Shown here one piece after another: positions 38,732 through 64,000 of a DNA stretch of 64,000 bases. Origin of the DNA: a virus; IMG/VR virus record IMGVR_UViG_3300042731_011319, positions 45,723-109,722 of that record; one strand, given 5' to 3'. Each line of letters opens with the position of its first letter. The stretch's first letter is position 1. The notes below the pieces were generated by a model. It made no database searches, had not been told where the DNA came from, and worked only from the letters and a program-made list of their open reading frames with translations. Made by a program: the position numbers and the translations under genes.

Positions 38732-39745
38732 TTAAAAGTCGTCTTCTAGAGATCCGCTTTGCTGATATTCCCTTACCCTGCGTTCGAAGAAGTTTCCCAT
38801 AGCCTGAACATCAACAACTTCACCTAGCCAAGGGAATGGGTTTTTATCACTTGGAAATCTGTATTCAAGCCCTATAGCTTCAAGTCTTCTATTTCCGATA
38901 TAATACATGTAGTCAACAAACATGTCTGAGTTTAAACCGAGAATCCCCGTAGGTAGAACATCTTTAGCATAAGCTATTTCGAGGTCTACAGCTTTTTTAA
39001 TATGGTCAACAAATTCGTTTTTAATTTCATCCGTCCATATCTCTGGATTTTGATCAATTAATGTATTGATTAAGTATGTTCCAAATGCTATATGCGAGCT
39101 TTCATCTCGAAGAGTATACTTAATTTGATCAGATATGCCTTGAAGTTTATTTTGACGCCCGAGTGCAAGAAGCATGGCGAAACCGCTAAAGAAAAAAGTA
39201 CCTTCACATACAATCCAGTAGGTCAAAAAATTTCTTAAGATTTCTTGTTTACCTTCTAGGGTGTTAGAGTTAAAGTCTTGTCTGCTAATATCATCAGTAA
39301 TACTCATAAGGAAGTCATCTTTCGCTTTTATGCTAGGAATCGTTTCATAAGCGGCAAAAACTTCTTCGATATCTAAGTCAAGACTATCACATATATATAC
39401 TATCGTGAGGTTGTGAAGGCTTTCTTCAAAAGCTTGACGAAGAATGTATTGACGACACTCAGCATCCGTAATAAATCTAAAAGCAGAAAGCAAAAGGTTA
39501 TTACCAACCAAAGACTCAGATCCAGCAAAGAATCCAAGACATCGTTTGACGAGGAGTTTTTCATCTTCTGTGATTTCATTGTTCTTCCATTGTTTAATAT
39601 CGTTTTGCATGGATATTTCTGTAGGCATCCAATTGTTGGCGCAACTTTTTAAAAATAAGTCCCATGCATACTTGTGTTTGTGTGGTAAGATTCTATTAAC
39701 TCCGGCTATATTTTCAGTAAGTAATTGTCCTGTTTTGTCTTCCAT
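38732..39745 (-). CDS. nrdB: Ribonucleotide reductase small subunit, class Ic-like
   Basis: 337-residue R2. Metal ligands are E77, E108, H111, E181, E215 and H218. Their spacing equals that of the Chlamydia trachomatis class Ic enzyme (E89, E120, H123, E193, E227, H230, from memory), with Glu replacing the Asp of E. coli D84. The radical-Tyr position is Ile115 rather than Tyr or Phe, with Tyr117 near. The C-terminus (residues 325-337, acidic and Ser-rich) would bind NrdA. It supports deoxynucleotide supply during infection. nrdA is four genes upstream, not adjacent. Confidence 0.92.
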   Translation of the reverse strand: MEDKTGQLLTENIAGVNRILPHKHKYAWDLFLKSCANNWMPTEISMQNDIKQWKNNEITEDEKLLVKRCLGFFAGSESLVGNNLLLSAFRFITDAECRQYILRQAFEESLHNLTIVYICDSLDLDIEEVFAAYETIPSIKAKDDFLMSITDDISRQDFNSNTLEGKQEILRNFLTYWIVCEGTFFFSGFAMLLALGRQNKLQGISDQIKYTLRDESSHIAFGTYLINTLIDQNPEIWTDEIKNEFVDHIKKAVDLEIAYAKDVLPTGILGLNSDMFVDYMYYIGNRRLEAIGLEYRFPSDKNPFPWLGEVVDVQAMGNFFERRVREYQQSGSLEDDF

Positions 39746-40398: not shown

Positions 40399-40815
40399 CT
40401 ATTGGTATGCATGCTTAACAATGATATCTATGATATTGTGGTCAATTTTATCGGGGAAAGATCCTAAATTAAAAATATTAAACCAACCTGATTCAGTGTG
40501 CTCAAAATTTAAAGTAGGGATAACTAGTTCTTTTTGGAAACAGTAATGTATGTGAAACTTGCCAGTTTTCTGATTTAATGTATCGGCATAAAAAATATTC
40601 TTAATTGAACATTTAATTCCAGACTCTTCAAGAAGTTCTCTTTGAGCTGAAAGCAATGGAGATTCTCCTGTATCTATAGCCCCTCCAAATATGGACCAAT
40701 AGCCACCAAAGGGTACAGGTTGACCTTTATATAATTCTATCCGCTTATTTAATAAAATAAAATCTCCACAAAGAACTGCTATACCTGAGCAATCTCTACT
40801 AATAACGCCTGTCAT
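40399..40815 (-). CDS. NUDIX hydrolase
   Basis: 138 residues. [20 protein letters not shown] followed by ESGI contains the Nudix box, GxxxxxExxxxxxxREUxEExGU, around residues 43-67. The GGYWSIFGG before it is the normal lead. It would hydrolyse a nucleoside diphosphate linked to another moiety, perhaps a damaged dNTP or a nucleotide sugar or cofactor. It overlaps the protease gene by 4 bases. Confidence 0.88.
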
Positions 40816-42038
40816 CTAGAATTAAGTTCTGATTCAAATTTTTTATCCCAATCAACTTGACCGTTTTCATCAATCCATGTAGGTTTTACTTGGTCATCAC
40901 TTGATAAAAAAGCAATGAGAATAATTACAAATAAGCTAACAAGAAAGGTGGTAAACAATATCCAAGATATGTTTTTTTTTAAAAAACCTAGCTCTGGCTC
41001 CGGTTCTGGCTCTGGCTCAGGTTCTGGCTCAGGTTCCGGTTCTGGCTCCGGTTCTGGCTCGGGTTCTGGCTCAGGTTCCGGTTCTGGCTCCGGTTCTGGA
41101 TCAGGTTCTGGATCAGGTTCTGGTTCGGGCTCTGGGTTTTTATCGGGAGTGCCTAATATCATTTGGTCGGCATCAATAATTCCATATCCCCATGACTTAT
41201 CTCTGCCTATGATTCCAGCATCATCAGCGCAGTTTATTAAAAGATTACGTATATCTTGAATTGTATAGGAATGTCCTTCAGATTTAAGTTTGGAGATAAG
41301 CAGGGCAACCACTCCAGAAACAAAGGGGCAAGCCATAGATGTGCCACTAAGCTTGGCATAAGTTTGGTTTTTGTATGTACTATATATAGAAACCCCTGGG
41401 GCTGCAATTTCCACGGTTTTTCCTATAGATGAAAATGATGCGATCTTTTTGTTTTTATCAAAAGCTGCAACAGCAATACATTCTTCAAAGGCAGCAGGAT
41501 AATTAACTCCACCAATTCCTGAATTGCCAGCAGCACAAATAATAGGAATATTGCGATTGTATGCTTTTCTTACAGCGGCTTGCACTAATGGACTTGCTGA
41601 TCTACCGCCAAGAGACATGCTAATAATATCAACGCCAGATGAAATACAATACTCTATAGATTTCGCAATACCCGCATTAGAACCACTACCGCTATTAGAT
41701 AAACCTTTAACGCATAGGCATTTAGAATCGGGGGCTAATCCCACCATACCTATAGAATTATTTTTAGCCGATATAATACCTACGCAATGTGTTTGATGGC
41801 CATTTTTATCATCAATCGATTCGTTTTGAATAAAACTTTTGCCTTTAATGGCGTTATCTCCAATATCTGGGTGGTCTGGCCAGCCAGTATCAATCACCCC
41901 AATTAATACATCTTGGCCGGTAGTGATATCCCAAATTTTAGGGATATTGAAATCAGACAAACTCCAGTCGGTAACTTGACTCAGCGAAGAAACAATATCT
42001 GCAACATCAAAATCTGGAATTTTATATTGAGGCTTCAT
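40812..42038 (-). CDS. Subtilisin-like (S8) serine protease with proline-glutamate linker and membrane anchor
   Basis: 408 residues. The catalytic triad is D50 (VIDTG), H81 (NGHQTHCVG) and S234 (GTSMACP), with oxyanion Asn172. After the protease domain comes a rigid tract of 24 Glu/Asp-Pro dipeptides (residues 302-349), then a membrane segment (about 357-378) and a short polar tail. No N-terminal signal peptide is evident, so the protease could face the cytoplasm tethered to the inner membrane. It lies between nrdA and a NUDIX gene. A phage-encoded, tail-anchored subtilisin is unusual; the substrate is unknown. Confidence 0.88.
40992..41135 (-). repeat. Glu-Pro codon repeat in the protease gene
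   Basis: 144 bases encoding 24 Glu/Asp-Pro dipeptides with variants of a 12-base unit (ggttctggctca/ccg and similar on the plus strand). Likely expandable by slippage; it gives a Gly-Ser shadow frame on the opposite strand that should not be annotated as a gene. Confidence 0.9.
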
Positions 42039-42047
42039 TAGGAAGGT

Positions 42048-44495
42048 TTATTGGCAGGATTCGCAAGTTCCTCCGTTTTTCATAGCTTCAATACTACATG
42101 CTGTGGGATCTTTTTTTTCTTCAGAGCCTGTTGATTTTTCAATTTTACTTGCAGCCCTATTCCTTAAATAATAGGTGGTCTTTAGTCCTTTTTCCCAGCA
42201 AGACATGTAAATATCATTAAGATATTTAAGGGATGTTGTTTTATTGTACAGGTTGAAACTTACAGCTTGATCTATCCATTTCTGGCGCTGAGCATTACAG
42301 TCAATTAATTTAAACATATCACGATCAAATGCAGTCTTGTATTTCTGTTTAATATCTTCTGGTATAGAGCCATTGAGTAAAGAGAGGTCTCCGTCGCAAC
42401 TCTTAATCATTGCAGATATTTCAGATGTCCATAATCCTCGAGCTTTCATATCTTTAACGAAATGAGGATTAGTGATGTAGAAGTTGCCACTCTTGTTTTC
42501 GTACACAAATAAAACAGAAAAATTTGGTTCTATACTCTGCTCAACTCCATTGATATAACCAATAGTGGCAGTTGGTGCAATAGCCATAACATTACTATTA
42601 CGCATTCCATTTTGTTGAACATTGTCACGAACTTCTTTCCACGACTTAAGAGATTCCCCTTCTCCTGTTTTGTAAGATTTAGATTTATCCCTGTATGATT
42701 GTAAATTATTCCAACTATCAATAGGGAAGATATTTTGAGACCATAGTGAGCCTTTGTAATTGCTGTAAGAGCCGCGCTCTTTTGCTAGATTAGAGCTTGC
42801 AAGTATAGCCTCCCTGCTAAAAAATTCAAAAAAGTTGCTGTTCCACTTGATAGCTGCATCGCTGTCAATCTCTATGTTTTTAATATGTAAAACATCATGT
42901 ATACCCATGACTCCTAGGCCGATAGGTCTATTTTTTAAGTTAGAGTTAGATGCTTCTTTTGTTGGGTAAAAATTAATATCTATAACATTGTCAAGCATTC
43001 TGATGGCGGTATGTATAGAGGATGTTAATTTATCAAAATCAATATGACCTTCAGGGTCTAAGTGGTTTAATACATTAATAGAGCCAAGATTGCATACAGC
43101 AGTCTCTCCAATCTTAGTTTTTTCGCCCTGAGAATACTCTGATGGTTTAGTGTGGAGAGTAATTTCAGTACATAGATTAGAGCTTCGAACAGCACCTTCA
43201 TGCTGATTAGTATACCGAATATTACAGGGATCTTTGAATGTATTCCATGGATGAGAAGTTTCGAATAGAACCTTGAGCATTTTTTTCCAGAGCTCTTTGG
43301 CTGGAATTTTCCTGAAGTTTTTAATTTCACCATGTTCTGCGGCAAGGCATGCATCTTTATAGCGATCATCAAAATCTTGACCAAAATAATCATGAAGAGT
43401 TTTACCATCTTCGTAAACCATTTCGCTAGGATCAAAGAAATACCAATCTTCTTCATTTTTAACCCTACGCATAAATTCGTCTGGAATCCATGATGCAGTA
43501 TTCATATCATGACATCTCAGTCTATCGTCGCCAGTATTCCTTCTAAGGTTTAAGAAATCTTCAAAGTCTAAATGCCAAGGCTCAAGATAGGCACATCCGG
43601 CACCCGGGCGTTTGCCTCCTTGATTAACTGCAACTAATAAATCGTTAAAAATTTTAAGCCAAGGAACAAGTCCACTAGAGATACCATTAGTTCCCTGAAT
43701 ATGAGCGCCTGTAGAGCGAAAGGGGGTAACATCAAGACCAAGACCACCGGCAAACTTTGATTTCCGAGCCTCTTGCCAAGCCCCGTCAAAAATGCCGTCA
43801 ATACTATCATCAAAAGTATTAAGATAACAGGAACTAAGCTGAGAGTGTGTAGTGCCACTGTTAAAAAGAGTAGGGGTAGAAGGAGTATATAGTTGATTGC
43901 TTATTAAATTGTAAAACTCTATAGCTCTTTCGTTTTTATTGTCTTCATTAAGTGCAAGACCCATGGCGACTCGCATAAAAAATGCTTGAGGAGCTTCCAT
44001 GATTTTTTGGTCAAGCCTAATAAAATATCTATCATACAAAATCTGTACACCTAGATATTTTAATTTTTTATCCCTCCTGATTTTTAGAGATTCAGAAAGC
44101 AATGATAAATCAAAATCTAATAACCTAGGATCAAGCCTATTTTCCTTAACGAGTTTTTTAATGTTCTGTATAAAGCTTTTGCGATATTGTAGTTTGAAGG
44201 TATCGGAATCAACACCTTCCTTAAAGACTTCTTTGTATAAAGTATTTAGTAATAGTTGACCAGCGGCAAAAGAGTAATTTGGCTCTTTTTCAATTTTTTC
44301 TCTGGCTGACAATATGAGCGCTTGATCTATTTCCTTTGTGGTAATTTTATCAAATAGTTGTAATTGAGCATCGAGTACTATTTCACTTGCGGAAACATCT
44401 TCTATACCTTCACAGGCTCTTTGAGCACTGGCATTGATTTTATCTACATTGAAATCTTCTAAGCGACCATTTCTTTTTTTTATTTTTATATCCAT
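42048..44495 (-). CDS. nrdA: Ribonucleotide reductase large subunit, class I
   Basis: 815-residue R1. The N-terminus is a regulatory ATP-cone (KRNGRLEDFNVDKI). The active site has C223 and C468 as the redox pair, C442 as the thiyl site in SSNLCTEI, and N440 and E444. The shuttle pair is C811 and C814 in the C-terminal GGTCESCQ. Reduces ribonucleotides to deoxyribonucleotides with the product of nrdB at 38732. The protease gene starts 10 bases downstream. Confidence 0.95.
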   Translation of the reverse strand: MDIKIKKRNGRLEDFNVDKINASAQRACEGIEDVSASEIVLDAQLQLFDKITTKEIDQALILSAREKIEKEPNYSFAAGQLLLNTLYKEVFKEGVDSDTFKLQYRKSFIQNIKKLVKENRLDPRLLDFDLSLLSESLKIRRDKKLKYLGVQILYDRYFIRLDQKIMEAPQAFFMRVAMGLALNEDNKNERAIEFYNLISNQLYTPSTPTLFNSGTTHSQLSSCYLNTFDDSIDGIFDGAWQEARKSKFAGGLGLDVTPFRSTGAHIQGTNGISSGLVPWLKIFNDLLVAVNQGGKRPGAGCAYLEPWHLDFEDFLNLRRNTGDDRLRCHDMNTASWIPDEFMRRVKNEEDWYFFDPSEMVYEDGKTLHDYFGQDFDDRYKDACLAAEHGEIKNFRKIPAKELWKKMLKVLFETSHPWNTFKDPCNIRYTNQHEGAVRSSNLCTEITLHTKPSEYSQGEKTKIGETAVCNLGSINVLNHLDPEGHIDFDKLTSSIHTAIRMLDNVIDINFYPTKEASNSNLKNRPIGLGVMGIHDVLHIKNIEIDSDAAIKWNSNFFEFFSREAILASSNLAKERGSYSNYKGSLWSQNIFPIDSWNNLQSYRDKSKSYKTGEGESLKSWKEVRDNVQQNGMRNSNVMAIAPTATIGYINGVEQSIEPNFSVLFVYENKSGNFYITNPHFVKDMKARGLWTSEISAMIKSCDGDLSLLNGSIPEDIKQKYKTAFDRDMFKLIDCNAQRQKWIDQAVSFNLYNKTTSLKYLNDIYMSCWEKGLKTTYYLRNRAASKIEKSTGSEEKKDPTACSIEAMKNGGTCESCQ

Positions 44496-55135: not shown

Positions 55136-57628
55136 TTAGCTAATTTTAATTAATGCTATACGAAATCCAACGTTGTTACTTTGGTTATCAGGTGTGCGGA
55201 TGGTGCGGTAGGCTGAACGCGAGTACGAGTCTGGATATTGCCACGAACCACCCCGCATGACCCGCTTATCGCCCGTAGCTGGACCCTCAGGATCTGTTTG
55301 AGCATCCGAACTGTACCAATCATACCAATCCGCCGTCCATTCAAAAACGTTCCCATGCATGTCAAAAAAGCCCCATGGGTTCGCACTGTAAGAACCTACA
55401 TCGGTAGTTTCATTTATCGTACCACCATAATTGGCATCGCTTGTACTGATCGTGTCTCCCGTCGAGTAAACCGTGGTGGTACCTGCCCGGCAGGCATACT
55501 CCCACTGAGCCTCGGTGGGCAATACATACGCCCACCCCGCAGAGATATTACCCGCCTCCTGTGCATTTAAACGGGTAAGGAATTTTTGAATATCATCATG
55601 TGAGACCTGCTCCACCGGACGATTGGGATTGCCAGAGAAGTTGCTCGGCGTGGCATTAAGTCCATCTGTATTCCCCGTCATCACCGCTTCGTACTGGGCC
55701 TGTGTAACCTCATATTTTCCCAAGTAAAAACCTTCAGTTAGGGTAACAGCGTGCGGTGAAGCATAATTGATATCATTTTGCCCCATGGTAAAAGTACCAG
55801 GTTCTACCCAGAGCATTTCCAGATTTTTATCAGTTTCATTTAGAGCTAAAGGTGCGGTATATTCGGTGGCAATAGGTTCTGCTACAACTACATCCTCAGC
55901 AGGCATAGAAAATGTTTTAAAAGGTCCATCTTCTGTAAGGGTAATCTCTTGAGACGAAGATTTACCCTTTGCAGATGCAATGTTTCCGCTGACATAGACC
56001 TCATCATTCTCCTTGTATAAAGGATAAATCGCTGGTGGGTTGTCGGTTGGATCAATTTCGGTACTATTCATAACAGAATAACCACCATTGGAGGGCCATG
56101 CATTCGGTGCAGTGTAAATTACATTTTCCATATAACCACCATTGGTTACTCCATTATACGCATTTGACCCGCAAAATAAGTAACCATAGGTTAGGAACAT
56201 TGGATGGCGCCTAGTTATAACTAGGTATTTATGACCTAAAAAGAAATCAGATATGGAGTTCAGCTGCATACTATTTGAGTTCAGTGCACCATAATTAGAG
56301 TAACTACCATAGCTAAGAACTCTTGTGGGATGGAATTGATTGTCGGGATATGAGACCTGCTCAATTTCCTTCCCTTGGCCTAACTGACCGTCTCTACCTT
56401 CGCCAAAAGTATATAAGAAAGTATCCTTTCCTAGGATGTAACTATTTCCATCCTGAACTCCAATTTTAATTGCATTTGTAAAAACTTCTATATCTTCAAA
56501 TGTTGCTGGGAAATCACCATAACTGCCGCTTTCCATAGGTGCCATAACTGGAGTTGCGTAATTTACGGGAAAAACAGAAGAGGAAATCCTTGACCCGTAC
56601 CCACATGCACCCCGGTAAGCACTATCGGAACATGTAGAATAAACCGTTCCATCCTTCTTTAAATAAAGAGCATGTTTAACACCTGCGGCAACATCAACAA
56701 TATCGCTAAGTAAATGCTCGTTAGTAAACCTCATTCCATCGCCACCTTGAGACCGCAATGCCTCTGCTACATTTAGTGTATCATCAGTTAAGTGACTACC
56801 CTTTTCATTCTTGCCAGCCTTATATACATTGCCATCTTTCGTTATAAAGAAAACGGTACGCCTAGCAGAGCATGCATGAATTTTTACAATGTTAGTTATA
56901 GGAACTGCTGTCGACTGATCGGCTGTTCCTAAATTGTCTATATGGTAGCACATTACATCTACGGGATAAGTGGTTACCGCATTCGCCCCGTTATCAATTA
57001 ATTCAGTGGCACGACCAACCTGCACTACAGTTCCATCTTTTTTTAAAATAAAGGTGGATTCATTAAAAATTGCAACATCTACAACATCCGTAATTGGCAC
57101 TATTGTATTACCCACCATTTCGTGTGACATGTAGTAATATCCAGATTCTATGCATTGCCTAGGGTGACATACATGAGATTCATCTATTGGCGAATTAGTT
57201 GTTCCATCAGGCACATGCAGTTCTACATGACTAAATGTACTTAACGAATCGTCGCTCCATCCCAGTGCCAACTGCCCATAATTATTTCTTCCACAAGCAT
57301 ATAGGTTACCCTGTTTGGTAATGAAAAATGTTGAAGTTCCTGCATTTCTTACAGATACAACATCTGCAGGATTAAATTCAGTAAGAGCAGTATAATTTAT
57401 ATGATCTTTGTCCGAGTAAAATATTCCATGTTCAGCAGGTAGAACTGGAGCTTCCCATACAGTATTAACATCAGTGCCGTGCGAGGAATCTGATGCGTAG
57501 TCGTACCCAACGCCAAGTGTGCCGTACTGATTAAGCCCGCTCGCAATTACCTGTCCTCCGCCGATGCGGATATGCCTACCATCCCTTGCGGTTATAGTGT
57601 TTATGTTAATACTGTTATTTAAGCTCAT
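55136..57628 (-). CDS. RCC1-repeat protein with C-terminal FGE-like C-type lectin fold
   Basis: 830 residues. Residues 1-470 hold RCC1-like blades (repeated 'xFxxTKxGNxYAxGxNxxGQLxxG', e.g. FFITKQGNLYACGRNNYGQL), expected to form a seven-bladed propeller. The C-terminal 220 residues are an FGE/SUMF1-like domain (LWVEPGTFTMGQNDI, LGKYEVTQAQYEAV, YVLPTEAQWEYACRAGTTTV, FFDMHGNVFEWT, VMRGGSW). The two catalytic cysteines of true FGE are replaced by Tyr and Ser in SWQYPDSYSRSAYR, so it should not make formylglycine. It is likely a surface adhesin. Its C-terminus looks like the variable end of DGR target proteins. GC-rich (33 of 60 bases at 55261-55320). Confidence 0.8.
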   Translation of the reverse strand: MSLNNSININTITARDGRHIRIGGGQVIASGLNQYGTLGVGYDYASDSSHGTDVNTVWEAPVLPAEHGIFYSDKDHINYTALTEFNPADVVSVRNAGTSTFFITKQGNLYACGRNNYGQLALGWSDDSLSTFSHVELHVPDGTTNSPIDESHVCHPRQCIESGYYYMSHEMVGNTIVPITDVVDVAIFNESTFILKKDGTVVQVGRATELIDNGANAVTTYPVDVMCYHIDNLGTADQSTAVPITNIVKIHACSARRTVFFITKDGNVYKAGKNEKGSHLTDDTLNVAEALRSQGGDGMRFTNEHLLSDIVDVAAGVKHALYLKKDGTVYSTCSDSAYRGACGYGSRISSSVFPVNYATPVMAPMESGSYGDFPATFEDIEVFTNAIKIGVQDGNSYILGKDTFLYTFGEGRDGQLGQGKEIEQVSYPDNQFHPTRVLSYGSYSNYGALNSNSMQLNSISDFFLGHKYLVITRRHPMFLTYGYLFCGSNAYNGVTNGGYMENVIYTAPNAWPSNGGYSVMNSTEIDPTDNPPAIYPLYKENDEVYVSGNIASAKGKSSSQEITLTEDGPFKTFSMPAEDVVVAEPIATEYTAPLALNETDKNLEMLWVEPGTFTMGQNDINYASPHAVTLTEGFYLGKYEVTQAQYEAVMTGNTDGLNATPSNFSGNPNRPVEQVSHDDIQKFLTRLNAQEAGNISAGWAYVLPTEAQWEYACRAGTTTVYSTGDTISTSDANYGGTINETTDVGSYSANPWGFFDMHGNVFEWTADWYDWYSSDAQTDPEGPATGDKRVMRGGSWQYPDSYSRSAYRTIRTPDNQSNNVGFRIALIKIS

Positions 57629-60600
57629 TCTGATTCAACTGTGAAAAGTGTGGTGTTTCTATAGCTTGCTGATATATTTACCGAGCCTGGAGCTGTAGGC
57701 ATTGTGAACGTAACAGGATTGCTTGTTGATGTGCCAATACCAGGAACATTAGTCCACTGAACGAATTCATAATCTGTGGGCGGTGTAGCAGTTAATGTAA
57801 TCTGTGATCCGCTTGTATATGTTCCCGTTTCACTCAAATCAGAAGTTATCGAATAATCAAAACTAGAGTTTACTGTAATTGGTAACTTGGGAGCCGTTCC
57901 ATCCACATATCCATCTTCTGGCTCGGTATCAAATCCAGTATAAGAGACACCTATATCCTGGGCGGATTCACTTGCTATAATCGATCTATATGACAATATT
58001 GGGGAATTAGGTGCCTCACTAAACCTCCATTTGTACTCAAATACATGGTGCTTATGAGGAATATTATCATAGTAGCCACCGCCTTCAATATAAAGACCTC
58101 CAGGTTGCCCAGTATACTGATCAGCATCAGCAACATTTGGGATTGGGTAAATTTTAAAGTCTTGAAGAAACCCATAATGTTCCTGAGAGTCGTTACCCAA
58201 TATTCCAACATACGCCTGTGTGGACTCAGCAACCATTTCATATCCCTCTCTACCCAAACTAAATCCCCCAGTAAATATGAACCCAAATGCGGGATCGTCA
58301 TATTTTGAAAGATACGCCATAGATGTACTGGTTCGGCTTCCAGTATACCAAGCACCGTCTTCACCATTTGCATTTGCAACATATACTCGTATTGTAGTTA
58401 CAACATCACGGTACTGAATCTCACTCCCCCACCTAGTATCCGGCAAGTTAGTGGTAGTGAACTCCCAGTCTGAAAGTGTTATCCCAGGAAATGACTCACT
58501 TGTCGTAAAACTGGAAGGAATTACAAAATAATTCATGGCTGGAGCTCCATTCGCTACATAATTCGCCGTTACAGTAACATCGCTTGACGGCATCGTAAAC
58601 TTTACAGCATTTGTATTGGCGTTCGTGCTGTCCACAAATGTAACACTAGGGCTAAACGACCAAGATGAAAACTCGTATCCCGATGGCGCAGTAGCTCCAA
58701 GTGTTACGGTTGAGCCTGGAGCATAACTATCCCCTCCGATTTCTTCACCATCTCCACTTACGGTTACTGCATAAGTAATTAGTGTATAATTGGCGGTTGC
58801 AGTAACATCGCTTGACGGCATCGTAAACTTTACAGCATTTGTATTGGCGTTCGTGCTGTCCACAAATGTAACACTAGGGCTAAACGACCAAGATGAAAAC
58901 TCATACCCCGATGGCGCAGTAGCTCCAAGTGTTACGGTTGAGCCTGGAGTATAATCATTCCCTCCGGTCTCCTCACCATCTCCACTGACGGTTACCGTAT
59001 AAGTATTTTGTGTATAACTCGCCAACAAAGTTACATTTTCTGATGGCATAGTTAAATTAAAAACATTATTACCTACAGGGTCTTCAGTGACCGCCACAGG
59101 ATTGCTGCTTGTGTCTCCTGATGCGGATATTGAAACGAGGGAATGATCCGGCTGAGGTAATATTGCAAACGAAAGTATTTTTCCTTCATTTGATAAAATA
59201 ATTCCAGATAATTGTAAGTCACTTATATTTGATTGTATAGGATTTTTATTCGTCGAACCACCACTAGTGCCGTTTCCTAATTGGTCAAAATCATTTGAAC
59301 CCGAAGCCCATGCATTGCTATCGCTTTTTAAATATGCCGCATGACTTCCGCCTGCCGATATTCCGACCACTCCGTTAAATATAGAATTATCCACATTAGT
59401 TACCTGCACTGGATTGTTTCGATCCGTAGTTGTACCATCTCCTAATTGGCCTTTGATATTTAAACCAGCTGCCCAAACCGTGGTATCGCTCTTCGAATAC
59501 AACGTGTGATAATTTCCTGCCTCTACCGCTATAACATCAGTAAAATCAGTCGTGTTTATATTCTTTACTTGGGTAGGATAATTTCTATCCGTGGTTGTAC
59601 CATCTCCTAATTGGCCAAAATTATTTCTTCCGGCCGCCCACACTGTACCATCATTCTTTAAATACAGGGTATGATAACTTCCTGCAGATATTCCTACAAT
59701 TTCGCTCAGAACAGTACCATCTGCATGCTTCACCTGTACCGGATTGTACCTTGCGTTTTGGGTACCGTCCCCTAATTGGCCGTAAGTATTCGTTCCTGTC
59801 GCCCACACCGTGCCATCACTCTTTAAATACACCGTGTAATTCGATCCTGCCGCTATCTCTATAACATCAGTAAAATCATTTCCATTTTGGTTTTTCACCT
59901 GAATAGGGCTGTCATAGCTATCAGTCGTACCGTCACCCAATCCGCCATAATTACCATAACCTACCGCCCACACCGTACCATCACTTTTCAAATACACCGT
60001 GTGAAACTCACCTGCTGATACCGCAACTACTTTGTTAAATTCAGCACCATCCGCATGTTTCACCTGTACGGGATTATTTCTTTGTGTTTTGCTACCGTCT
60101 CCTAATTGCCCGCTATTATTCCTTCCCACTGCCCACACCGTACCATTGCTCTTCAAATACACTGCGTGATTATAGCCTGCTTCTACCTGTATAATATCAG
60201 TAAAATCAGTTGCGTCTAGATTTTTCACTTGAGTGGGATTATTTGTATTCGTGGTTGTACCGTTTCCTAATTGTCCGTAATAATTATGACCCACTGCCCA
60301 AGCGGAACCATTCTCCCTTAAATATACTGTGTAATTGTTTCCTGCGGAGATAGATTTTGTACCTTGAAGAACTCCACCTGTGATGTCACTAGTCATACTG
60401 TAGATATTAGCTTTAAACTCCACGTTAAGTACAGGGGCACTTGTTGCACCGCTGGGCATCGTAAATTTAAAGTTTGGAGCGGTCGGATCAGGATCAACTG
60501 TAACAGCAACACTATTAACAGTTACTGTAACCGTATCGATTTCTTGTCCAGATGGTATATCAGTAACCGTAAATTTTACAACCTCACCGGCTTCTACATT

Positions 60601-63600
60601 TCCATCGGTTGGCTGAGTATAATTAATATTGGCATGTGTTGGCAGGTCGTAAACCGCTACATAATTCGCGGTTGCGGTAACATCGCTTGACGGCATCGTA
60701 AACTGCACATCATTTGTATTGGCATTCGTGCCGTCCACAAATGTAACGCCAGTATCAAACGACCAAGATGAAAACTCGTATCCCGATAGTGCAGTGGCTC
60801 CAAGTGTTACGGTTGAGCCTGGAGCATAAGTACCACCTCCAGCCTCTGTACCGTCTCCATCTACGGTTACTGTATAAGTAACTAGTTCATAATTCGCGGT
60901 TGCGGTAACAGCTCGTGCTGGCATTCTAAACTGAACAAGACTCATAGTAGCATCTACTCCATCTTCAAATGCGACAGGAGTACTAAATGTCCAAGATGAA
61001 AACTCTTGCCCTACCACTGGTTCAGTAATTCCAATTGTTACGGTTGAGCCTTCTGCATAATCACCAGCACCAAATAATATACCGCCCCCACTCAAAGATA
61101 GGGTATAAGTGATTAAAGATTGACTGGGGTCTTCAGGATATGCATCAAACTCATCATCTACTCCATCTCCATCTGAGTCAGCTCCAGATGCACGATTTGG
61201 ATCTATTGGGTAAATATCCTCTAAGTCAGAAACCCCATCTCCGTCATCATCCGCATCGTAAATATCTGGAATTCCATCACTATCTGTATCTGCAATAGGT
61301 GATAATTTTGTACCCGATGGTATCGATTCGGAAACAACCGTATTTGATGGGGCATAGTAACTTTTTCCTCCGATTGTTACTAATACCCAATCCTGATAAG
61401 GAACAAGTGATAATGGATATATATATCCAGTTTCTTCCCCTAATGATCCCCATGCATAATAAGTCTCAACTGGATTTGCAGGATCATCGATTGGCGATGT
61501 CGGGAAATCTTCAGATGGAGATGTTCCCTCGCCATTGCCCGTGGATGGCCCTAGAGCAACTGCAGTAACAGTTATTTTCCCATTCATTGATGCATGATTT
61601 GAGCATACATATGTATACTCTCCTGGAGTAGTTGGGTTAAAGGTGTAGTTCCCTTCAGCGTCAACACTACCAACCACATTGCCCCCTGAGTCTTTTATCT
61701 GTATTGGATGACTTGAGTGAACTAAATTATCAAACACGAATGTATCTCCTACCGCAAGTGTTAGGGTTGGATTTCCAACAGATCCATCATTTTCCCCGCC
61801 TGTGAAATAATAATTGGCACCATCTCCGCCCACTGAAAGGTCGGTGGTTGTCTCACCTTCCATGTAATAAGTTATACCATCTATGGTTTTCGAGATGGGA
61901 TTGCTTAGTCCAAATGCATTAAGGTAAACAGGGTAATAGTAACCTAGCCCTTCATTGCCGTATCCATATACTTGGTAAGCATCGTTGGTTATTGTTTCAG
62001 TTACCTCTCCAGTTGATGAAAGCGCACCTACTCCAGCACCCCCATCAGTTCCCCCGCCAAGGTAGGCCTGAGTAATTGCACCGGATATAATTGAGGATCC
62101 ATCCCCGGTATATGTAGCATCTACATGACTAGATGCGGAGGATGCGTTAATTAAGTCTGCAATTTGTTTCTCGGTGTATGTTGAAAGGTCATTGGATAAT
62201 CTTACCGTTATAATCCCGGTTTCTGGATCAAATATCACCTGATCGGATTCTGCCCCGCCTTCTATTGTAACACTAATACCAGAATTTGCACCATTGGTCT
62301 TAGAGGTAATAGTAAGATTGCCAATTGTGAGAACATCAGGAGTTGAGGCCTGCGGTGCAATAGTTGTACCAAATGAAATACCTTGCCCCTCCTGGGTGCC
62401 ATCATAGTTGCCTAAATATCTATTCACGCCGGTTGGCATGTAGTAGAGCTTACCATTGAATACATGCTCTGTGTAGCCACCATCCCCCACTCCTTCAGCA
62501 ACTGTCTTATCAAAATACAAAGGATAATAGCCATCTACTGATGTAAGCCTAGTATCCGTATCAATCATGTAGTATGTAGCTCCATCAATAACCACAGGTA
62601 TTGAATCTACTGGACGGCCTTCTTTGTCTCTAGCTGGAGGGGAGTTATATAATGGGTAATAGTATCCCAGTCCTTGTGGTCCATTTCCGTATGCCCAGAA
62701 ACTATCATCTTTATTATCAAGGGCATTAATGATTCCATCTAAGTCATCATCTGAAAGAGGCATGTTAGGCATATCTGGTTTAACATCGGATACTATGGTG
62801 CTACCAGTGGTGTAATAAGTTTGTCCATTTATCTTAACTTTACGGTAGGATCCTGGAGTAAGTCCGTTAGGTGTAACATATAATGGAGATATGTACCCTT
62901 TTTTATTGTGATCAACTTCCTGGCCTGATCCGGCTGGGCTTTTTAGTCTTATCTTTCTACCAGCAGGGTGCCTCTTAGTAAGAGCTGATGAAAACTGTAT
63001 TGACCCAAAACCGCTAATTACGGCATCTTCCTTTTGCTCAATAGGAACAAAACTAGCTTCTGTAGTGCCAAAAGCAGCATACAATGTATTTCCGTAGTAA
63101 GTAGAAGATGGGCTAACCCAATAGCTTATATTTGGGTCACCCCACCAATCTATTGCCTGGGTTATATTTACATGCATAGTACCTCTTGCCCTTAATTCTG
63201 TGCCCTCAAGAACTATCCAAACATGACCCTCTAGCCCCGTGTCAAATTGATTGCTTGTGTAATATGTGCCATCTTCCCTGATTCTTTGAATAAGCCAGCC
63301 ATTCAAGGTGGAAGAAATCACCTCAAATCGTTCACTTGGCCCAGGAGAATAACTTCCTCCACGTGGATTTGTCAGTCCCCCTCTCGCATTGACTATTGAG
63401 CCCACAACTATTTCGCCAGTTCCCCATGTATCTGTTCCATCAATTCTTATCTCTGGCAACCTAAGGAACGGTGCGCTTGAGTATTCAGCGATAAATTTTG
63501 TATAAATGTGACCTTCAGCAAATGTATAGAGAACATAATGAGAAGAACCTCCTACGTTTACTGTTGTTTCTGGATTAGTTATTGAGGAATCGGATGATAG

Positions 63601-64000
63601 GCTAAGTGTATCTCCAACCAGGAAATAACTAGAATCATCAATTTGAATTTCTGTATCACCTATTTCAGCATCTTCTGTCATTGTTGCAAATGAATCAGAT
63701 GTATTTCCATGAACATAATAGGAGTCGCCCGATCCTGGGGCTACTAGCACATCATCTATACCATCTTCGTCAGAGTCTACGCCACTAACACTAGCATCAG
63801 TATCATCAGAATCTATAGGTGCGTAAACACCATCTCCGTCAGTATCTACACCATCAGATGTAGCTCGAAATGGACTGTCAGGGTATTGGTCAATTAGATC
63901 ATCGAACCCATCACCGTCTGTATCAGTGTCAGTGTCAAATTCATCGTCTATTCCATCACCGTCTGTATCAGTCCCAGATGAGCGAAGCGGGTCATTGGGA
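57625..64000 (-). CDS. Giant multidomain surface protein (5' end outside window)
   Basis: At least 2120 residues; the frame is open to the right edge, so the true start is not here. Order in the protein: TSP3 calcium repeats (63750-64000, DSDGDG-type), beta-rich repeats with GLGYYYPLY-type motif, an amicyanin-like cupredoxin domain (about 61567-61815; C-x2-H-x2-M in VCSNHASMNG with an upstream His in HSSHPIQ), more TSP3 (about 61130-61300), InlB-like B repeats (about 60660-61110), RCC1 propeller (about 59250-60400), further InlB-like repeats (58560-59100), an unassigned domain (about 57900-58540), and a last InlB-like repeat. Likely a long host-binding or tail-associated fibre. It overlaps the RCC1/FGE gene by 4 bases. 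Confidence 0.85.
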   Translation of the reverse strand, partial: PNDPLRSSGTDTDGDGIDDEFDTDTDTDGDGFDDLIDQYPDSPFRATSDGVDTDGDGVYAPIDSDDTDASVSGVDSDEDGIDDVLVAPGSGDSYYVHGNTSDSFATMTEDAEIGDTEIQIDDSSYFLVGDTLSLSSDSSITNPETTVNVGGSSHYVLYTFAEGHIYTKFIAEYSSAPFLRLPEIRIDGTDTWGTGEIVVGSIVNARGGLTNPRGGSYSPGPSERFEVISSTLNGWLIQRIREDGTYYTSNQFDTGLEGHVWIVLEGTELRARGTMHVNITQAIDWWGDPNISYWVSPSSTYYGNTLYAAFGTTEASFVPIEQKEDAVISGFGSIQFSSALTKRHPAGRKIRLKSPAGSGQEVDHNKKGYISPLYVTPNGLTPGSYRKVKINGQTYYTTGSTIVSDVKPDMPNMPLSDDDLDGIINALDNKDDSFWAYGNGPQGLGYYYPLYNSPPARDKEGRPVDSIPVVIDGATYYMIDTDTRLTSVDGYYPLYFDKTVAEGVGDGGYTEHVFNGKLYYMPTGVNRYLGNYDGTQEGQGISFGTTIAPQASTPDVLTIGNLTITSKTNGANSGISVTIEGGAESDQVIFDPETGIITVRLSNDLSTYTEKQIADLINASSASSHVDATYTGDGSSIISGAITQAYLGGGTDGGAGVGALSSTGEVTETITNDAYQVYGYGNEGLGYYYPVYLNAFGLSNPISKTIDGITYYMEGETTTDLSVGGDGANYYFTGGENDGSVGNPTLTLAVGDTFVFDNLVHSSHPIQIKDSGGNVVGSVDAEGNYTFNPTTPGEYTYVCSNHASMNGKITVTAVALGPSTGNGEGTSPSEDFPTSPIDDPANPVETYYAWGSLGEETGYIYPLSLVPYQDWVLVTIGGKSYYAPSNTVVSESIPSGTKLSPIADTDSDGIPDIYDADDDGDGVSDLEDIYPIDPNRASGADSDGDGVDDEFDAYPEDPSQSLITYTLSLSGGGILFGAGDYAEGSTVTIGITEPVVGQEFSSWTFSTPVAFEDGVDATMSLVQFRMPARAVTATANYELVTYTVTVDGDGTEAGGGTYAPGSTVTLGATALSGYEFSSWSFDTGVTFVDGTNANTNDVQFTMPSSDVTATANYVAVYDLPTHANINYTQPTDGNVEAGEVVKFTVTDIPSGQEIDTVTVTVNSVAVTVDPDPTAPNFKFTMPSGATSAPVLNVEFKANIYSMTSDITGGVLQGTKSISAGNNYTVYLRENGSAWAVGHNYYGQLGNGTTTNTNNPTQVKNLDATDFTDIIQVEAGYNHAVYLKSNGTVWAVGRNNSGQLGDGSKTQRNNPVQVKHADGAEFNKVVAVSAGEFHTVYLKSDGTVWAVGYGNYGGLGDGTTDSYDSPIQVKNQNGNDFTDVIEIAAGSNYTVYLKSDGTVWATGTNTYGQLGDGTQNARYNPVQVKHADGTVLSEIVGISAGSYHTLYLKNDGTVWAAGRNNFGQLGDGTTTDRNYPTQVKNINTTDFTDVIAVEAGNYHTLYSKSDTTVWAAGLNIKGQLGDGTTTDRNNPVQVTNVDNSIFNGVVGISAGGSHAAYLKSDSNAWASGSNDFDQLGNGTSGGSTNKNPIQSNISDLQLSGIILSNEGKILSFAILPQPDHSLVSISASGDTSSNPVAVTEDPVGNNVFNLTMPSENVTLLASYTQNTYTVTVSGDGEETGGNDYTPGSTVTLGATAPSGYEFSSWSFSPSVTFVDSTNANTNAVKFTMPSSDVTATANYTLITYAVTVSGDGEEIGGDSYAPGSTVTLGATAPSGYEFSSWSFSPSVTFVDSTNANTNAVKFTMPSSDVTVTANYVANGAPAMNYFVIPSSFTTSESFPGITLSDWEFTTTNLPDTRWGSEIQYRDVVTTIRVYVANANGEDGAWYTGSRTSTSMAYLSKYDDPAFGFIFTGGFSLGREGYEMVAESTQAYVGILGNDSQEHYGFLQDFKIYPIPNVADADQYTGQPGGLYIEGGGYYDNIPHKHHVFEYKWRFSEAPNSPILSYRSIIASESAQDIGVSYTGFDTEPEDGYVDGTAPKLPITVNSSFDYSITSDLSETGTYTSGSQITLTATPPTDYEFVQWTNVPGIGTSTSNPVTFTMPTAPGSVNISASYRNTTLFTVESE
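58573..58955 (-). repeat. Near-identical tandem InlB-type repeats
   Basis: Two copies of about 155 bases at 58573-58727 and 58801-58955, offset by 228 bases and differing at only a few positions, coding for the EFSSWSFSPSVTFVDSTNAN segment. A third, more diverged copy begins near 60673. Recent duplication or gene conversion. Confidence 0.8.
59250..60400 (-). repeat. RCC1 blade repeats in the giant gene
   Basis: About seven imperfect repeats of about 150-165 bases, each with 'AGxxHTxYLKSDGTVWAxGxNxxGQLGDGTxTDRNNPxQVK'-type residues (quoted in pieces elsewhere). The set is equal to one seven-bladed beta-propeller. Confidence 0.85.

What the first reader, a model, noticed from the sequence alone, without database searches (positions are those of the whole stretch)
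38732..39745. Class I ribonucleotide reductase R2 with chlamydial-type ligand spacing and Ile at the radical site
E77, E108, H111, E181, E215 and H218 match the C. trachomatis class Ic positions with identical spacing; Ile115 stands where Chlamydia has Phe127 and E. coli has Tyr122. That predicts a metal-based radical (Mn/Fe), not a tyrosyl radical. Ile here is a variation I do not recall.
Basis: partly seen in the sequence, partly recalled or inferred. Interest (0 to 1): 0.7.

Follow-up and report, generated by a model that had tools for sequence, protein, structure and literature searches.

The report
Phage class Ic-like ribonucleotide reductase R2
A marine virus carries a DNA-precursor enzyme whose radical-making subunit has isoleucine where most relatives have a radical-bearing tyrosine; it matches the chlamydial metal-radical type, and this viral group with isoleucine or valine has already been reported.

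Summary
The gene is on the minus strand (39745 to 38732, 337 aa). Its best solved relative is Chlamydia trachomatis R2 (52% identity, E about 1e-113), in register with a constant offset of 12. All six metal ligands and both second-sphere residues match; Ile115 falls at Phe127. The 149 I/V-type R2s examined, nearly all on viral contigs, have Val (133) or Ile (16) there, with every metal-site and electron-path residue checked invariant. Metal ligand 1 is Glu in all non-Tyr rows (173) and Asp in all Tyr rows (80), the pairing that separates class Ic from Ia/Ib. With both positions masked, the I/V rows form one 100/100 clade with, or nested in, the Phe class Ic proteins. A complete R1 lies upstream. 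Best explanation: a class Ic-type enzyme with a high-valent metal oxidant, probably Mn/Fe; metal identity cannot be read from sequence. It is not new: a 2013 paper cites Hogbom 2010 for Leu, Ile and Val in R2c, and a February 2026 preprint (PMC12918982) names this marine viral clade 'Ic-like' with Ile or Val. Added here: full ligand conservation, single-origin phylogeny, evidence against a metal-free cofactor.

The parts
38732..39745 (-). nrdB: class I ribonucleotide reductase small subunit (R2), class Ic-like, 337 aa
39401..39403 (-). Ile115 codon, position of E. coli Tyr122 / C. trachomatis Phe127
   Evidence: alignment; Ile or Val in 149 relatives
39515..39517 (-). Glu77 codon, first metal ligand (Ct E89; Asp in Tyr-type relatives)
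39413..39427 (-). Glu107, Glu108 and His111 (Ct E119, E120, H123): second-sphere Glu and two metal ligands
39395..39397 (-). Tyr117 codon (Ct Y129), invariant in the I/V clade and kept in nearly all relatives
39203..39205 (-). Glu181, metal ligand (Ct E193)
39092..39118 (-). Tyr210, Asp214, Glu215, His218 (Ct Y222, D226, E227, H230): electron relay, second sphere, two ligands
39629..39631 (-). Trp39 (Ct W51, E. coli W48)
38765..38767 (-). Tyr327 (Ct Y338, E. coli Y356), radical transfer to R1
42048..44495 (-). nrdA: large subunit R1, 815 aa; ATP cone, all-alpha and barrel domains; partner of the R2
   Evidence: R1 upstream on the same strand in all 120 relatives where it was found
44232..44489 (-). 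N-terminal ATP-cone of R1 (residues 3-88), allosteric activity site
   Evidence: Pfam PF03477 E 4.4e-11
43170..43172 (-). R1 Cys442 codon, thiyl-radical cysteine (E. coli C439), invariant in 116 relatives
42168..42173 (-). R1 Tyr775-Tyr776, radical-transfer dyad (E. coli Y730/Y731)
42054..42065 (-). R1 C-terminal Cys811/Cys814 pair for re-reduction

Best explanation
This is the radical-generating subunit of a functional, virus-encoded aerobic ribonucleotide reductase of the class Ic type. A dinuclear metal site held by four glutamates and two histidines is activated by oxygen (or peroxide), and the oxidising equivalent stays on the metals, most likely as Mn(IV)/Fe(III), because the position beside site 1 holds a redox-inert Ile or Val. 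From there the hole passes through Trp39 and Tyr327 to the Tyr775/Tyr776 pair and Cys442 of the neighbouring R1, which reduces ribonucleotides to DNA precursors for viral replication. Shown here: the sequence anatomy, its conservation, and phylogeny with class Ic. Inferred from C. trachomatis R2: the Mn/Fe identity, the oxidation states and the electron path. Isoleucine is most likely a packing residue interchangeable with valine, with no chemistry of its own.
For: All eight first- and second-sphere metal residues equal C. trachomatis R2 and are invariant in 149 I/V-clade sequences, 123 of them distinct, as are W39, Y117, Y210 and Y327. Ligand 1 is Glu with every Ile/Val (149) or Phe (24) and Asp with every Tyr (80); this pairing separates Ic (Phe/Glu) from Ia/Ib (Tyr/Asp) and Id (Tyr/Glu) (PMC8463856; PMC4118035). 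With columns 77 and 115 masked, Tyr rows separate from all non-Tyr rows at 100/100, the I/V rows form one clade at 100/100, and the Asp-to-Glu change occurs once. Ile and Val interchange at least 7 times among 41 rows. R1 keeps all catalytic cysteines, N440, E444 and the Tyr dyad in every relative covered. The AlphaFold2 model's best solved matches are the C. trachomatis NrdB structures, led by the Mn(II)Fe(II) form.
Against: Metal identity cannot be deduced from ligands; Fe/Fe or Mn/Mn metal-centred oxidants are not excluded. No member of this clade has been biochemically characterised (PMC12918982). About 20 positions are invariant in the I/V clade and differ from Phe- and Tyr-type proteins, several close in sequence to the metal ligands (G75, S76, S109, N112, L113, V116, C180, I208, T211, I219), so cofactor details may differ from Chlamydia. 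Whether Phe rows enclose the I/V clade or are its sister is undecided (p-AU 0.347).
Confidence: 0.85

Rival explanations
1. Metal-centred oxidant but a different metal pair (Fe/Fe, or Mn/Mn as in class Id), within the same four-Glu site.
For: Class Id also has four Glu ligands and a metal-centred Mn2(IV,III) oxidant (PMC8463856; PMC6754362 abstract); identity is not readable from ligands; clade-specific residues near the ligands.
Against: Class Id keeps the Tyr, which this clade lacks; the second-sphere residue is Glu107 as in C. trachomatis (E119), not Cys as in F. johnsoniae Id (table); phylogeny groups it with Ic.
Confidence: 0.1
2. A tyrosyl radical on another residue, such as Tyr117 or Tyr176.
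For: Tyr117 is invariant and Tyr176 nearly so in the clade.
Against: Tyr117 is also present in C. trachomatis (Y129) and in nearly all Tyr-type relatives, and Tyr176 in C. trachomatis (Y188), which uses a metal-centred oxidant; some relatives have His at 117 or Phe at 176.
Confidence: 0.04
3. R2-like ligand-binding oxidase (R2lox) rather than an RNR subunit.
For: R2lox shares four Glu ligands and lacks the radical Tyr; V80 and Y176 sit at the numbering equivalents of the R2lox V72-Y162 cross-link.
Against: Profile score far higher to RNR PRK07209 (448.9 bits) than to any R2lox model (at most 70.9); the C-terminal Tyr327 is kept; Phe185 (Ct F197), an Ala in R2lox, is invariant; R1 is nearby on the same strand.
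Confidence: 0.01
4. Metal-free class Ie-like enzyme, a possibility PMC12918982 left open.
For: That preprint found no clear link between the group's abundance and a single trace metal.
Against: Class Ie replaces carboxylate ligands (V, P and K in A. urinae; table) and needs the Tyr for DOPA; here all carboxylates are invariant in 149 sequences and the Tyr is absent.
Confidence: 0.01

Closest known systems
C. trachomatis class Ic R2 (NrdB; 1syy, 4d8f, 4m1i)
   Same: All metal ligands, second-sphere Glu and Asp, W51, Y129, Y222, Y338 and F197 equivalents; ungapped spacing; about 52% identity.
   Different: Ile115 or Val instead of Phe127; about 20 clade-specific residues; C-terminus ends in DDF; viral.
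'Subclass Ic-like' marine viral RNR clade, GOV 2.0 (PMC12918982)
   Same: Marine viral class I RNR, beta subunit with Ile or Val at the Tyr position, alpha closest to NrdAz; almost certainly the same group.
R2c of 6y2n and other bacterial Phe/Glu R2s (Chlamydiae, Planctomycetes, Verrucomicrobia)
   Same: Glu at ligand 1, non-Tyr at the radical site, same wider family.
   Different: Phe, not Ile/Val; 46-51% identity.
Tyr-type NrdB of beta/gammaproteobacteria and of Pseudomonas phage Peetri
   Same: Same wider family, 43-51% identity, same radical-transfer residues.
   Different: Tyr at the radical site and Asp at ligand 1, the class Ia pairing.

Membership tests
Class Ic RNR R2 (R2c) | No Tyr at the E. 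coli Y122 position | tested here: met
   Ile115; Ile or Val in 149 of 149 clade members
Class Ic RNR R2 (R2c) | First carboxylate ligand is Glu; six-ligand set E,E,H,E,E,H | tested here: met
Class Ic RNR R2 (R2c) | Phylogenetic grouping with Phe-type class Ic R2 | tested here: met
   100/100 separation of all non-Tyr rows from Tyr rows with the two sites masked
Class Ic RNR R2 (R2c) | Phe (or Leu) at the radical site as in reference sequences | tested here: not met
   Ile here; but Leu, Ile and Val are documented in R2c, so Phe/Leu is usual rather than strictly defining
Class Ic RNR R2 (R2c) | Active Mn(IV)/Fe(III) cofactor | not testable with these tools
   needs purified protein; metal not readable from sequence
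Class I RNR holoenzyme | Cognate R1 with thiyl Cys, Cys pairs and Tyr-Tyr dyad; C-terminal Tyr in R2 | tested here: met
Class Ia/Ib | Radical Tyr with Asp at ligand 1 | tested here: not met
   Ile115 with Glu77
Class Id | Tyr with Glu at ligand 1 | tested here: not met
   no Tyr at 115; definition
Class Ie | Loss of carboxylate ligands | tested here: not met
   all carboxylates kept
R2lox | Lacks C-terminal Tyr; Ala at the Ct F197 position, ligand cavity | tested here: not met
   Tyr327 and Phe185 invariant

The most novel reading that the evidence does not exclude
The viral I/V clade has a distinct cofactor chemistry within the four-Glu site: the nearly invariant V80/Y176 pair (numbering equivalents of the R2lox Val-Tyr cross-link) or the clade-specific residues around the ligands give a cross-linked or differently metallated radical initiator suited to low-iron oceans, which would be a new class I subclass.
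Probability: 0.05. Interest if true: 0.7.

Novelty: already known. Interest (0 to 1): 0.27.

Why it matters
It confirms that a widespread group of marine viruses carries a class Ic-type RNR that should run on a metal-centred oxidant. It also narrows the cofactor question the 2026 preprint left open: a metal-free enzyme is very unlikely and the site is chlamydial in every ligand. The repeated exchange of Ile and Val suggests that the old radical-Tyr position needs only to be non-oxidisable and well packed once the oxidant sits on the metals.

Tried and rejected
R2lox, class Id, class Ie and an alternative tyrosyl radical were tested against ligands, the C-terminal Tyr and relatives, and rejected or ranked low. 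Independent loss of Tyr by the viral clade was tested by a tree with sites 77 and 115 masked; one Asp-to-Glu change suffices. The join of the I/V clade with viral Phe rows L169, L170 and L179 was distrusted as long branches meeting, so those rows were dropped. An isolate with this R2 was sought: none of the 3175 matching phage records reaches 60% identity, the best being 45%. A viral scan with Pseudomonas phage Peetri R2 gave only three Tyr-type relatives. The AlphaFold2 model is mediocre (pLDDT 79.5, 38 rows; rmsd about 9.6 to 4m1i) and was used only for fold identity, not pocket geometry.

Full report
The gene. The finding lies on the minus strand, 39745 to 38732, an ATG-started ORF of 337 aa. 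It is an RNR small subunit by Pfam (E 2.4e-75) and by NCBIfam PRK07209 (448.9 bits, cut-off 309). The window is part of a 109,722-base IMG/VR virus record that also encodes a tail sheath protein, a protein with baseplate or tail-fibre matches, a DNA polymerase fragment and a DnaB-like helicase. That points to a contractile-tailed phage; its host is unknown.

The residues. Against C. trachomatis R2 (1syy, E 8e-114) the alignment is ungapped from query residue 8 to about 298 with a constant offset of 12. The ligands E77, E108, H111, E181, E215 and H218 equal E89, E120, H123, E193, E227 and H230. The second sphere E107 and D214 equals E119 and D226. W39, Y117, Y210 and Y327 equal W51, Y129, Y222 and Y338. 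Ile115 equals F127.

Relatives. A viral scan returned 80 loci at 88-94% identity; with the window's own copy, 67 have Val and 14 have Ile at the site. A second scan, ranked by similarity to C. trachomatis R2, added a group at 62-66% with Val, two at 81% with Val (L252, L253) and a divergent member with Ile (L240). In all, 149 sequences (123 distinct) have Val (133) or Ile (16), with every ligand, second-sphere residue, W39, Y117, Y210 and Y327 invariant. The only cellular-genome hit above 52% was a 'Woesebacteria' MAG contig at 90%, which is probably a misbinned virus. No sequenced phage record reaches 60%.

The pairing. Ligand 1 is Glu in every Ile, Val or Phe row (173) and Asp in every Tyr row (80). 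A review gives Tyr/Asp for Ia and Ib, Phe/Glu for Ic and Tyr/Glu for Id (PMC8463856). A second notes that the first ligand is Asp in Ia/Ib and Glu in Ic, and warns that metal identity does not follow from it (PMC4118035).

The tree. With columns 77 and 115 masked so that the trait cannot shape the tree, the I/V rows form one clade (100/100). Tyr rows separate from all non-Tyr rows (100/100), and the Asp-to-Glu change is needed once (same picture with long-branch rows). Whether Phe rows enclose the I/V clade is open (p-AU 0.347). Ile and Val interchange at least seven times among 41 rows.

The partner. R1 (44495 to 42048, minus strand) has an ATP cone, the all-alpha domain and the barrel. It has C223, N440, C442, E444, C468, Y775-Y776 and C811/C814 in the motifs expected for a working enzyme (roles from E. 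coli R1, established knowledge). These are invariant in all relatives covered, and R1 lies upstream on the same strand in all 120 relatives where it was found. Between R1 and R2 here lie a subtilase, a NUDIX protein and two small ORFs; the subtilase was detected in only 6 of 83 near relatives, some of which are cut short by contig ends.

Mechanism. The best reading is a class Ic-type R2 with a metal-centred oxidant. The anatomy, conservation and phylogeny are shown here. The Mn(IV)/Fe(III) identity and the path W39/Y327 to Y775-Y776 to C442 are inferred from C. trachomatis and E. coli. A metal-free (Ie) enzyme, which PMC12918982 kept open, is very unlikely because no carboxylate ligand is lost and the Tyr needed for DOPA is absent. 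R2lox is excluded by R1, Tyr327 and Phe185.

What is known. PMC3824934 states that substitution of Phe by Leu, Ile and Val has been documented in R2c proteins, citing Hogbom 2010, a paper I could not read. PMC12918982 (bioRxiv, February 2026) describes a marine viral clade of 269 sequences, alpha nearest NrdAz, beta with Ile or Val, called 'subclass Ic-like', with no characterised member. The window's R2 fits that description. The finding is therefore correct but already reported; the additions here are the complete metal site, the Glu pairing, the single-origin tree and the Ile/Val exchange.

Noticed in passing
39506-39508 (V80) and 39218-39220 (Y176), minus strand: V80 (149/149) and Y176 (148/149) of the I/V clade sit at the numbering equivalents of the R2lox V72-Y162 ether cross-link pair; most Tyr-type relatives have Ala and Phe. 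C. trachomatis also has Val and Tyr there, and R2c is reported to lack the cross-link.
   Followed up: partly
38735-38743, minus strand (C-terminus of R2): Nearly all I/V-clade R2s end in Asp-Asp-Phe or similar (D335 147/149, F337 149/149), unlike the bacterial Phe- and Tyr-type relatives aligned; it may mark a changed R1-binding tail.
   Followed up: no
55136-63750, minus strand: Two RCC1-repeat proteins of 830 and 2041 aa; the first has a C-terminal stretch matching a phage kinase family (phrog_18508).
   Followed up: no
40812-42038, minus strand: Subtilase (Peptidase_S8) with a long Pro-Glu repeat and a hydrophobic C-terminal segment, lying between R1 and R2; detected in only 6 of 83 near relatives.
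   Followed up: partly
14585-37937, minus strand: Long run of ORFs of about 190-330 aa, many resembling glycosyl- or sulfotransferases by eye; the two scanned in Pfam had no hit.
   Followed up: no
L084: Contig filed as a Woesebacteria MAG carries a 90%-identical I-type R2 and is probably a misbinned phage contig.
   Followed up: no
L082 (CAKLQH020000007.1): 'Acinetobacter phage MD-2021a' record carries LysR, PhzF and other host-type genes around nrdAB and looks chromosomal.
   Followed up: no
L171, L172, L173: Viral R2s with His instead of Tyr at the position of Tyr117 (Ct Y129); L171 and L172 keep Tyr at the radical site.
   Followed up: no
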